A program made the position numbers and the translations under genes. 64,000 nucleotides of DNA from Azospirillum humicireducens (GTDB taxonomy: Bacteria; Pseudomonadota; Alphaproteobacteria; Azospirillales; Azospirillaceae): assembly GCF_001639105.2 (NCBI RefSeq), contig NZ_CP015285.1:1232501-1296500 (forward strand), given 5' to 3'. Below the pieces are notes generated by a model. The model was not told the origin of the DNA and did not search any database. It saw only the letters and a program-made list of their open reading frames with translations. Of this stretch, positions 50,989 to 53,623 are shown in pieces (the stretch's first letter is position 1; each line of letters starts with the position of its first letter).

Positions 50989-52650
50989 TCAGATCTGGCC
51001 GCGCTCACTCGCCTGACGCATCAGAACATATTGGCGCATCATCTGATTACGGAAACGATAGCGTTCCAATCCCGGCTCCACCATCGGGGCCAGGACGCCG
51101 CCATGGTCGTCGCGGGTCAGGCGTTTCAGCAGGTCGAGCGTCGCGGCACTCGGCAACTCACCGCTGTCGCCCGCCAGATCGTTGGGATCGAACACGCCAT
51201 AGGCGTCGGCCGGGCACAGGGCGGCGGCCAGCAGCGCATCCTCCAGTTCCGCGCGGCGGTCGGCCGCCAGTGCGCGGGCATAGCTCTCGACGATGCCGCG
51301 CTCGGCCTCCTGCAGGCAGCGGGCGACGGCATAGGCCAGATCCGGCCGCTCCACCAGCTTGCTGCCGCGGCTGACGGCGCTGCGCGCCGCATGCAGGCCC
51401 AGAAGCTGGGCGTAGTAGGGGAGCCCGCGCACGAACTCGGCGATCCGCCGCACCACGTCGGGCGCGAACTCGATCCCGGCATTCTGGGCACCGGCCTGGA
51501 TCAGCCGGCCGATCTCCTGATCGGTCATCAGCGGCAGATGCACCGGCACCAGCGACCGCTGGATCGACGGATGCTTGCCCAGCAGCTGGTCCAGATTCTC
51601 GGCGACGCCGACCACCAGCAGGGTGACCGGGATCGAACTGTCGGTCAGGTTCTTGAACAGCTCCGCCAGCTTGTTGCGGAAATCCTCGTCAAGGACGCGG
51701 TCGTATTCGTCCAGGATCAGCAGCACATGGGTGGCGTGGATGCCCGCCAGCACCTCGTTCAGTTCGGTGACGCTGAAGGTGCCGTCCGGCAACAGCTCGT
51801 TCAGGCTGGCGAAGTTGCGCCGGGCCGCGAACGGGTTGTCGAGCGCTGAGCGGTAATAGGTGGAGGGGATCTTCTTCAGGAAGTGCCTGAAGATGTCCTC
51901 GAAGCTCAGTTCGCCGCTGCAGGTCAGCTTCAGCGACAGGTAGCCGGCCTGCCCGGCGATCTTCTCGATCGCATTGGCGACGGAAGTCTTGCCGCGGCCG
52001 CGGTCGCCATAAAGGATGACGTGCGCCCGCTCCTCCTCGATGGCCGAGATGATGCGGCGGAGCGTGTCGTTGCGGCCGATGAACAGGCCGTTCAGCTGCT
52101 GCTTCGGCCGGGTCGGGGTGAAGGCCTCGCGCAGCAGGCCGTTCAGCTCCGGCGTCAGGCCCTTCAGCATGGCCGGCGCGTTGGCGCCCATGCCGCCGCG
52201 ATAGCCGCCGTTGACCGACATGGTGAAGCGCGGCAGCTCGTGCTCGCTTTCAGCCTCGCGCCCGCCGGGCTGCGGGAACATGTGGCCGCGGCGGTCGCCG
52301 GTGGCGTCGTTGTCGATGATGTCGGGCTGGCGCGGCGCGGCAGGACCGCGCATCGCCTCGAACCCGACGCGTCCCTGTCCGCCGCCCTGTCCGCCGTCCA
52401 CCGGACGCAGGGGCGTCCCTCCGGGCCGGGAGAATCCGGGAGCATTGGGGAAGTTGCCTGTGGTGGATCCTGGACCGGACAGGCCCGGTCCCGACATGCC
52501 AGGTCCACTCATGCCCATTCCGTTGCCGGTCAGGCCGCCGCCGAGTCCGCCACCGCCTAGACCCGCACCGCCTAGACCCGCACCGCCAGCCGCCGGCATC
52601 CGTTCGTCCGCCACAGCGGCCGAGCGACGCTTCCGAAAGAAATTCCGCAT
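50989..52650 (-). CDS. Orc1/STAND-like AAA ATPase with glycine-rich N-terminal tail
   Basis: A 553-aa ATPase. Residues 1-20 are basic (MRNFFRKRR). About 20-110 are a disordered Gly/Pro/Met tail with repeats such as 'GLGGAGLGGGGLGGG' and 'GMSGPGMSGPGLSGPG'. The AAA core begins 'LNGLFIGRNDTLRRIISAIE'. It has Walker A 'VILYGDRGRGKTSVANAIEK', Walker B 'HVLLILDEYDRVLDEDFRNK' and a sensor region 'LLVVGVAENLDQLLGKHPSI'. A helical lid follows, and a winged-helix-like end 'RYRFRNQMMRQYVLMRQASE'. This resembles Orc1-like and STAND P-loop ATPases. The role is unknown. I chose ATG 52650 over TTG 52659. Confidence 0.8.
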   Translation of the reverse strand: MRNFFRKRRSAAVADERMPAAGGAGLGGAGLGGGGLGGGLTGNGMGMSGPGMSGPGLSGPGSTTGNFPNAPGFSRPGGTPLRPVDGGQGGGQGRVGFEAMRGPAAPRQPDIIDNDATGDRRGHMFPQPGGREAESEHELPRFTMSVNGGYRGGMGANAPAMLKGLTPELNGLLREAFTPTRPKQQLNGLFIGRNDTLRRIISAIEEERAHVILYGDRGRGKTSVANAIEKIAGQAGYLSLKLTCSGELSFEDIFRHFLKKIPSTYYRSALDNPFAARRNFASLNELLPDGTFSVTELNEVLAGIHATHVLLILDEYDRVLDEDFRNKLAELFKNLTDSSIPVTLLVVGVAENLDQLLGKHPSIQRSLVPVHLPLMTDQEIGRLIQAGAQNAGIEFAPDVVRRIAEFVRGLPYYAQLLGLHAARSAVSRGSKLVERPDLAYAVARCLQEAERGIVESYARALAADRRAELEDALLAAALCPADAYGVFDPNDLAGDSGELPSAATLDLLKRLTRDDHGGVLAPMVEPGLERYRFRNQMMRQYVLMRQASERGQI

Positions 52651-52680
52651 CCGTCCCAATCCCCACGCGTTGTCGGCGTT

Positions 52681-52855: not shown

Positions 52856-52954
52856 TCAGCCGATCAGGATCGGCCCGACCGTTGCCCAGCCATAGAGAAC
52901 GGCGAGGAACAGGGCGAGGGTCATGCATTCACGCAGGAAAGCCAGAACCGACAT
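52856..52954 (-). CDS. 32-aa single-pass membrane peptide under LexA-type control
   Basis: A 33-codon frame reads MSVLAFLREC, MTLALFLAVLYGWATVG and PILIG, then TGA. Residues about 10-30 form one hydrophobic helix behind a short N-terminal segment with Arg and Glu. The frame is accepted because GGAGGT, a near-perfect ribosome site, lies 4-5 nt before the ATG, and because three GTTC-N7-GTTC boxes crowd its promoter region (52968-53038). Known precedent: Caulobacter SidA is a 29-aa SOS-induced inner-membrane division inhibitor. Homology to SidA is not claimed. The ATPase gene follows on the same strand after 205 bp. Confidence 0.75.
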   Translation of the reverse strand: MSVLAFLRECMTLALFLAVLYGWATVGPILIG

Positions 52955-52967
52955 GCCAACCTCCATT

Positions 52968-53038
52968 GTTCGCGTCTTGTTCTTGTATGGCTACCAGAAC
53001 GGACGCTGAACAGCAACCGCATAGTTCTCTTTACGTTC
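52968..53038 (-). promoter_or_regulatory. Three LexA (SOS) boxes
   Basis: The alphaproteobacterial LexA box is the direct repeat GTTC-N7-GTTC. Three perfect matches are present: GTTC-GCGTCTT-GTTC at 52968-52982 (plus), GTTC-AGCGTCC-GTTC at 53011-52997 (minus) and GTTC-TCTTTAC-GTTC at 53024-53038 (plus). A weak promoter, TTGCTG (53016-53011), 17 nt, TAGCCA (52993-52988), reads toward the 32-aa gene, with one box in its spacer, one downstream and one upstream. The boxes begin 14 bp before the ATG. Confidence 0.8.
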
Positions 53039-53134: not shown

Positions 53135-53623
53135 TCAGGCGGGATCGGCATCGTCGTAGCGGATCAGGTCGGTCCAGGCGCGCTCCAGCCGCCGCAGCGT
53201 GCGGTAGGTGGTCTCGAAATCGGCACCGTCGCTGTCACTGCGCAGCAGGCTGTCGGCCCGCGCCGCTTCCAGCTTCTTCAGCGCCTCGCAGGTGGCCAGT
53301 CCCTGTTCCGACAGCTTGAGCCGCGCGGCCCGCCGGTCGCGCAGGGACGGGCTGCGGTCGACATAGCCGGCTTCCACCAGATGCTTCAGATTGTAGGAGG
53401 CGTTGGACCCCAGGTAATAGCCGCGCTCCAGCAGATCGCGGACAGACAGCTCCTCGGTGCCGATGTGCAGCAGCATCAGGGCCTGGGTCGGGCTGAGGTC
53501 GGTCACGCCGATCCGGGCCAGCTCCATCCGAAGCACGTCGAGGAAGCGGCGGGTGATGCTCTCCATGACGCGGCCAAGGTCGGTGTAGACCGCGGGGGCC
53601 GCCACGCTCTGCTGCATGCTCAT
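53135..53623 (-). CDS. MarR-like winged-helix regulator
   Basis: A 162-aa protein. It has 'VMESITRRFLDVLRMELARI', 'LSPTQALMLLHIGTEELSVR', 'DLLERGYYLGSNASYNLKHL', 'VEAGYVDRSPSLRDRRAARL' and 'KLSEQGLATCEALKKLEAAR'. The helix-turn-helix and charged wing are clear. The segment 'GYYLGSNASYNLKHL' suits the LdtR-like branch of the family, though this is recalled only. AGGAACG precedes the ATG. Its 3' end lies 96 bp upstream of the outermost LexA box, so it could contribute read-through to the membrane peptide. Confidence 0.88.
   Translation of the reverse strand: MSMQQSVAAPAVYTDLGRVMESITRRFLDVLRMELARIGVTDLSPTQALMLLHIGTEELSVRDLLERGYYLGSNASYNLKHLVEAGYVDRSPSLRDRRAARLKLSEQGLATCEALKKLEAARADSLLRSDSDGADFETTYRTLRRLERAWTDLIRYDDADPA

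What the first reader, a model, noticed from the sequence alone, without database searches (positions are those of the whole stretch)
52856..53038. Three LexA boxes in front of an unlisted 32-aa membrane peptide: candidate SOS division regulator
Seen directly: a 33-codon frame (52954-52856, minus) with GGAGGT 4-5 nt before the ATG and one hydrophobic helix. Immediately upstream are three perfect GTTC-N7-GTTC repeats within 71 bp (52968-52982, 52997-53011, 53024-53038). Known: this direct repeat is the alphaproteobacterial LexA box, and Caulobacter uses the 29-aa SOS membrane peptide SidA to block division. By simple base-composition odds about two single matches to an 8-base pattern are expected in 64 kb on both strands; three this close are very unlikely by chance. 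Inference: the peptide is strongly LexA-repressed and acts on the membrane or divisome after DNA damage. SOS peptides of this size are usually missed by annotation.
Basis: partly seen in the sequence, partly recalled or inferred. Interest (0 to 1): 0.88.

Follow-up and report, generated by a model that had tools for sequence, protein, structure and literature searches.

The report
SidA-like SOS membrane peptide in Azospirillum
A 32-residue membrane peptide gene, preceded by a conserved set of DNA-damage switch sites, occurs widely in Azospirillum and its relatives and most likely stops cells from dividing while their DNA is being repaired.

Summary
All three GTTC-N7-GTTC sites of the 64-kb window lie in front of one 32-codon frame. 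A peptide profile matches 74 of 82 genomes of the family. Of the 73 loci read, 72 have at least one perfect box within 400 bp upstream and 56 keep an opposed pair in exact 27-bp register, against 3 of 363 control tiles with a box. In 385 sampled alphaproteobacterial genomes the perfect paired operator occurs in 5, once each, always here. dN/dS is 0.08-0.19. Aligned promoters place box 2 inside the -35/-10 spacer. Box-fronted relatives occur in a second family (13 of 14 loci) and in two more (3 loci). A family taken as Caulobacteraceae carries box-fronted peptides of 29-31 aa, presumably SidA, that share an ungapped motif. Best reading: a LexA-repressed SidA-type division inhibitor. Gene reality and LexA control are near certain from sequence; the SidA link is supported but distant; division arrest is inferred, not tested. 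The peptide matches no Pfam or NCBIfam model.

The parts
52856..52954 (-). 32-aa SOS membrane peptide, including stop codon
   Evidence: profile hits in 74 of 82 family genomes; dN/dS 0.079 in 16 close genomes; one helix, residues 2-31, mean pLDDT 90.7
52959..52964 (-). ribosome-binding site GGAGGT
   Evidence: read directly; similar purine-rich stretches in front of many relatives, judged by eye
52968..52982 (+). LexA box 3 (GTTCGCGTCTTGTTC), over the predicted transcription start
   Evidence: the geometry of box 2 plus box 3 (29 bp) is also that of 11 of 13 box-bearing loci of family f16 (29-30 bp)
52988..52993 (-). predicted -10 element (TAGCCA)
   Evidence: 17 nt after the TTG hexamer: A at its second position in 56 of 56 aligned operators, T at its first in 41 of 56; a plain consensus scan finds no promoter
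52997..53011 (-). LexA box 2 (GTTCAGCGTCCGTTC), inside the -35/-10 spacer
53011..53016 (-). predicted -35 element (TTGCTG)
   Evidence: TTG at this register in 55 of 56 aligned operators
53024..53038 (+). LexA box 1 (GTTCTCTTTACGTTC), just upstream of -35, opposed to box 2 at 27 bp
   Evidence: perfect pair at 27 bp in 56 of 73 loci, at 28 bp in 6 more; perfect pair pattern in 5 of 385 class genomes, each time here

Best explanation
The frame encodes a SidA-type SOS checkpoint peptide. In undamaged cells LexA dimers sit on two or three boxes that cover the -35 flank, the promoter spacer and (in this clade) the start site, and keep the gene off (inferred from anatomy). After DNA damage RecA-driven LexA cleavage frees the promoter (established pathway, applied here by inference). 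The 32-aa product inserts as one helix, probably N-terminus inside (Arg8 near the cytoplasmic face, inferred), and the helix face with the conserved Arg-Glu pair and the aromatic residue 12 further on binds a divisome membrane protein, most likely in the FtsW/FtsI/FtsN complex as SidA does, to hold septation until repair is done (inferred by analogy and distant similarity).
For: Peptide and operator conserved together: profile hits in 74 of 82 family genomes; of 73 loci read, 72 with at least 1 perfect box, 64 with 2 or more, 24 with 3 or more; 160 boxes in 29.2 kb upstream versus 6 in 195 kb of the rest of the same loci. Perfect operator pair only at this gene in 385 class genomes. Purifying selection. 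Neighbour genes differ between genera while peptide and operator stay. lexA of the same genome has two boxes of the same type upstream. Family f16: 14 of 17 genomes, boxes in 13 of 14 loci; A1 against f16 E 1.6e-10. Box-fronted peptides of 29-31 aa in 6 genomes of a presumed Caulobacteraceae family; a scan by box, size and hydrophobicity alone gave the first two. SidA is a 29-aa SOS-controlled inner-membrane peptide that interacts with FtsW (PMC4211646, passages). Diverse family profile against these peptides plus two f4 peptides: E 3.6e-6, 0 of 130 shuffles with the charged pair held fixed. Acid-to-aromatic spacing of 12 in 16 of 16 hand-picked sequences; longer motif in 85 of 87 loci.
Against: No induction, binding or phenotype data. 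Without the f4 sequences the SidA link is weaker: E 1.9e-4, and with the charged pair fixed 17 of 130 shuffles reach the score (f16 profile: 6 of 130); the earlier five-sequence comparison gave 40 of 150 and 7 of 150. The f16 profile against the set with f4 gives only E 2.1e-4. The f4 peptides were found by a profile that already held both groups, which favours them as a bridge. C-terminal halves differ (Gly27 block here, none in the SidA-like peptides). The gene lies 257 kb from lexA, not 23-28 kb as in 5 of the 6 genomes with SidA-like peptides. That these are SidA rests on size, box, family and place; no SidA sequence could be read. 8 of 82 family genomes lack a hit.
Confidence: 0.65

Rival explanations
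1. A TisB- or DinQ-like SOS peptide that acts on the membrane itself and slows growth or makes persisters, rather than a divisome-specific inhibitor.
For: Same size class, hydrophobic helix, LexA boxes; tight multi-box repression would suit a toxic product. DinQ is a toxic single-transmembrane SOS peptide (PMC3567139, abstract start in the listing).
Against: Only Arg8 and Glu9 are charged (sequence). The predicted leader is about 27 nt, too short for the structured, antisense-controlled leader of tisB (tisB recalled; promoter predicted). Residues kept at fixed positions suit a protein partner; similarity to the SidA-like peptides.
Confidence: 0.17
2. An SOS-induced membrane modulator with another target, for example a protease, transporter, kinase or envelope enzyme.
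For: A one-helix peptide could bind many membrane proteins; no target is shown. Some members have N- or C-terminal extensions.
Against: Likely SidA kinship; neither window neighbour is kept in any of the 29 loci read from other genera, so no neighbour hints at another target.
Confidence: 0.12
3. A leader peptide that regulates the downstream AAA/nSTAND-type ATPase gene (50989-52659, minus) under SOS control.
For: The ATPase gene follows on the same strand in 40 of the 44 loci read from the genus, and no terminator was recognised between them.
Against: No ATPase match within about 1.5 kb in 29 of 29 loci read from other genera, where the peptide persists; conservation is at the amino-acid level.
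Confidence: 0.04
4. Chance: an unused frame beside chance boxes.
For: Three boxes somewhere in 64 kb arise in 8 of 100 shuffles.
Against: The cross-genome evidence.
Confidence: 0.01

Closest known systems
SidA of Caulobacter crescentus (CCNA_02004)
   Same: SOS-controlled, about 30-aa single-helix membrane peptide; box-fronted peptides of presumed Caulobacteraceae share an ungapped motif (charged pair, small-hydrophobic step, aromatic 12 after the acid). sidA = CCNA_02004 from PMC10769358 (one passage seen).
   Different: 32 aa with a conserved C-terminal Gly block; two or three LexA boxes in fixed register, whereas about 97% of Caulobacter SOS promoters have a single box (PMC12700426, passages); 257 kb from lexA; function untested.
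DidA of Caulobacter crescentus
   Same: Small single-helix division inhibitor acting on FtsN (PMC4211646, passages).
   Different: 71 aa and SOS-independent (passages).
YneA (Bacillus subtilis) and SosA (Staphylococcus aureus)
   Same: SOS-induced division inhibitors; YneA interacts with FtsW (PMC13396833 and PMC6851548, titles and abstract starts in listings).
   Different: Other phyla and larger proteins (size recalled); no sequence relation was tested.
TisB and DinQ of E. coli
   Same: SOS-induced small hydrophobic peptides (DinQ: PMC3567139, abstract start; TisB recalled, and named a membrane toxin in a title).
   Different: Act on the membrane and are under antisense RNA control (DinQ abstract start; TisB recalled); no sequence relation was tested.

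Membership tests
SidA (SOS division inhibitor) | LexA box in the promoter | tested here: met
SidA (SOS division inhibitor) | About 29-aa peptide with one membrane helix | tested here: met
   32 aa, predicted helix 2-31; hydropathy up to 2.07 over 19 residues
SidA (SOS division inhibitor) | Sequence homology to SidA | tested here: inconclusive
   Against presumed SidA orthologues: E 1.9e-4 alone, 3.6e-6 with f4 peptides added; no authenticated SidA sequence was available
SidA (SOS division inhibitor) | Induced by DNA damage through RecA and LexA | not testable with these tools
   needs RNA-seq or a reporter
SidA (SOS division inhibitor) | Blocks division; interacts with FtsW (and FtsN) | not testable with these tools
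   needs overexpression, two-hybrid, suppressors
Alphaproteobacterial LexA regulon | GTTC-N7-GTTC operator, also in front of lexA itself | tested here: met
   lexA of G000 has boxes at C1:1028575 (+) and 1028625 (-), upstream of its start
TisB-type SOS toxin | Long structured leader with antisense RNA (recalled) | tested here: inconclusive
   predicted leader about 27 nt speaks against it, but the promoter is itself a prediction
TisB-type SOS toxin | Depolarises the membrane (recalled) | not testable with these tools
   needs a potential dye assay

The most novel reading that the evidence does not exclude
One old family of LexA-controlled micro-inhibitors, of which Caulobacter SidA is a local branch, is the SOS division checkpoint of at least five alphaproteobacterial families, and in Azospirillaceae it is held down by an operator not seen elsewhere in the sampled class: opposed LexA dimers at 27 bp (and, in one clade and in family f16, 29-30 bp) that lock the promoter spacer, possibly cooperatively, giving an all-or-none switch unlike the usual single-box control.
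Probability: 0.4. Interest if true: 0.8.

Novelty: new variant of a known kind. Interest (0 to 1): 0.7.

Why it matters
It would extend SOS division control by a tiny membrane peptide from the Caulobacter model to nitrogen-fixing Azospirillum and several other families, give 68 distinct natural variants in 87 loci that mark which helix residues matter for binding a partner, and offer a multi-box operator for studying how LexA dimers on facing sites repress one promoter. The peptide has no match in Pfam or NCBIfam.

Tried and rejected
Consensus promoter and terminator scans found nothing, and the downstream stretch folds no better than shuffles; the promoter came from aligned operators instead. 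No useful match in PDB sequences, PHROGs (2 of 20 members, best E 0.09), Pfam (1 of 20 members at 0.11 to YmiA-like), NCBIfam or plasmid records (window peptide only). Papers: by title, none of the papers listed (1; 7) is about an Azospirillum SOS regulon; the primary SidA paper is not held. Two searches for a lexA locus tag of Caulobacter found nothing, so the lexA-sidA distance there is recalled only. Class-wide profile hits outside the family without a box were set aside: with A1, 16 of 18 loci read had no box (the 2 with boxes are f16), 24 of 30 loci had none (L224 was skipped). Many of these are pieces of longer frames, some are short frames. Hits beyond the fetched loci were not examined. 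One search's permutations used f4 rows one residue out of register and are not used; one search repeats them. could in principle match past a stop codon; one search repeats it inside the open frame with the same count.

Full report
WHAT IS THERE. The window encodes MSVLAFLRECMTLALFLAVLYGWATVGPILIG at 52954-52856 on the minus strand, with GGAGGT four bases before the ATG. The only three GTTC-N7-GTTC sites of the 64 kb lie within 71 bp just upstream: the outer two on the plus strand, the middle one on the minus strand. The MarR-family gene upstream (53135-53623) is on the same strand and ends 180 bp before the peptide, so the boxes most probably serve the peptide.

IS IT A GENE. A single-sequence search of 100 genomes (own included) gave E below 1e-9 in 21, all of the genus. 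A profile of 20 relatives (A1) matches 74 of 82 genomes of the family at E 0.05 or better: 44 of 45 in the genus and 30 of 37 in the other genera. The misses are one fragmented genome of the genus, all 5 genomes of genus g6, the single g11 genome and 1 of 7 g2 genomes; the six g2 hits are weak (E 0.001-0.012). Named carriers include A. lipoferum, A. oryzae, A. melinis, A. endophyticum, A. picis, A. griseum, A. cavernae, A. agricola, A. doebereinerae and A. soli. In 16 close genomes dN/dS is 0.079, with 21 variable third positions against 9 first and 1 second; in a second clade of 16 it is 0.151; in the first clade plus five further genomes 0.192.

THE OPERATOR. I read 73 of the 74 loci (G057 was not fetched). 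72 have at least one perfect box within 400 bp upstream, 64 two or more, 24 three or more; 56 hold a perfect opposed pair GAAC-N7-GAAC-N12-GTTC-N7-GTTC (27 bp) and 6 the same at 28 bp; L129 has no box. Upstream 400 bp: 160 boxes in 29,200 bp; rest of the same loci: 6 in 195,254 bp; control tiles of 400 bp with a box: 3 of 363. The perfect 27-bp pair, searched in 385 class genomes, occurs in 5, one site each, and all five are this gene's operator; these 5 are the family members in that sample. The boxes were not used to select the 73 loci, so they are independent of the protein match.

THE PROMOTER. The 56 paired operators show TTG at a fixed place next to box 2 in 55 of 56, and 17 nt after that hexamer another with A at its second position in 56 of 56 and T at its first in 41 of 56. 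Box 2 therefore lies inside the spacer, box 1 just upstream of -35 and box 3 (in this clade) over the likely start. The promoter is inferred; a consensus scan does not see it.

CONTROL. lexA of the same genome (C1:1027797-1028516, minus) has two such boxes upstream of its start, so this genome uses the motif. In Caulobacter about 97% of SOS promoters have one box (PMC12700426, passages).

RELATIVES OUTSIDE THE FAMILY. In family f16 (not named by the tools) 14 of 17 genomes have a hit with profile A2, which already held two f16 sequences found at E 0.008 and 0.019 by A1. Thirteen of the 14 loci have perfect boxes just upstream; the other (L144) is cut at a contig end. Eleven of the 13 show a plus-then-minus pair 29-30 bp apart, the geometry of boxes 2 and 3 of the window. 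A1 against the f16 alignment: E 1.6e-10. A2 in 385 class genomes hit 18 at E 0.05. A wider profile, A5, hit 122 of 385 at E 0.5; of the 30 loci checked for boxes, six have one: three of the presumed Caulobacteraceae, one in f64 (32 aa) and two in f4 (33 and 34 aa).

SIDA. Family f63 is taken as Caulobacteraceae because G121 carries the holdfast protein HfaD over the cut-off, a model that among 14 control genomes rings only in Caulobacter vibrioides; G412 of the same family had no HfaD match. Around lexA up to 80 kb was read in five f63 genomes and scanned for a box, 22-50 codons and hydrophobicity: two gave 29-aa peptides (G507, G412), and a third genome (G483) gave one TTG frame that I did not believe. 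A motif scan over these five and 40 kb downstream of lexA in ten more found box-fronted peptides in 5 of 15 (adding G121, G511, G498). A sixth, G335, came from profile A5 and lies on another contig. They are 29-31 aa with the starts I chose, and in five genomes lie 23-28 kb from lexA. I take them as SidA orthologues from size, box, family and place; SidA has 29 aa (PMC4211646, passage), but no SidA sequence was available to me.

HOW STRONG IS THE LINK. Diverse family peptides against the six SidA-like ones: E 1.9e-4; 0 of 130 block shuffles reach the score, but 17 of 130 do when the charged pair is held fixed; for the f16 profile 0 and 6 of 130. An earlier run with five SidA-like sequences gave, with the pair fixed, 40 of 150 (A1) and 7 of 150 (f16). 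So much of the direct signal is the Arg-Glu at the same place. With the two f4 peptides added: E 3.6e-6 and 0 of 130 for the family, E 2.1e-4 and 1 of 130 for f16; but those two were selected by a profile holding both groups. Anchored without gaps, the aromatic residue stands 12 after the acid in 16 of 16 chosen sequences, and the longer motif holds in 85 of 87 loci of the family and f16 (the exceptions are L129 and L131). I judge common descent likely, not proven.

NEIGHBOURS. Among the 44 loci read from the genus, the MarR gene is found in 18 and the downstream AAA/nSTAND-like ATPase in 40; in the 29 loci read from other genera neither is found within about 1.5 kb. The peptide with its operator is the unit that is kept.

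HOW IT MOST LIKELY WORKS. Shown: conserved frame, conserved boxes, a predicted helix 2-31 with mean pLDDT 90.7. Established knowledge: LexA represses through this motif in Alphaproteobacteria and is cleaved on damage. Inferred: strong repression by two or three dimers, release on damage, insertion as one helix, and binding to FtsW/FtsI/FtsN to pause division. The main rival is a TisB-like membrane-active peptide; few charges, a short predicted leader and the SidA link speak against it.

VERDICT. A real gene, LexA-controlled by sequence, with a strikingly conserved operator, and most likely a SidA-type division inhibitor: a new variant of a known kind. On rechecking the calls I lowered confidence from 0.66 to 0.65, because the f16 comparison with the f4 peptides added is weaker than I had first written.

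Noticed in passing
L053 / L167 (G036:C1:2439587-2439652, minus): A second frame in one genome of the genus (about 46 aa from its ATG) with the same spacing (Tyr 12 after the acid) but no perfect box in the 3-kb stretch; possibly a paralogue outside LexA control.
   Followed up: partly
L132-L136 (genus g2) and L027, L122 (genus g5): Members with extensions: a longer N-terminal part in g2 (open frame of 64 aa, box pair at 28 bp) and an Ala-rich C-terminal tail in g5.
   Followed up: no
50989-52659 (minus): AAA/nSTAND-like ATPase with a Gly/Pro-rich N-terminal part, found next to the peptide in 40 of 44 loci read from the genus.
   Followed up: partly
G000:C2:486867-486925: Five overlapping GTTC-N7-GTTC matches made by an 11-bp tandem repeat, probably boxes without SOS meaning.
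   Followed up: no
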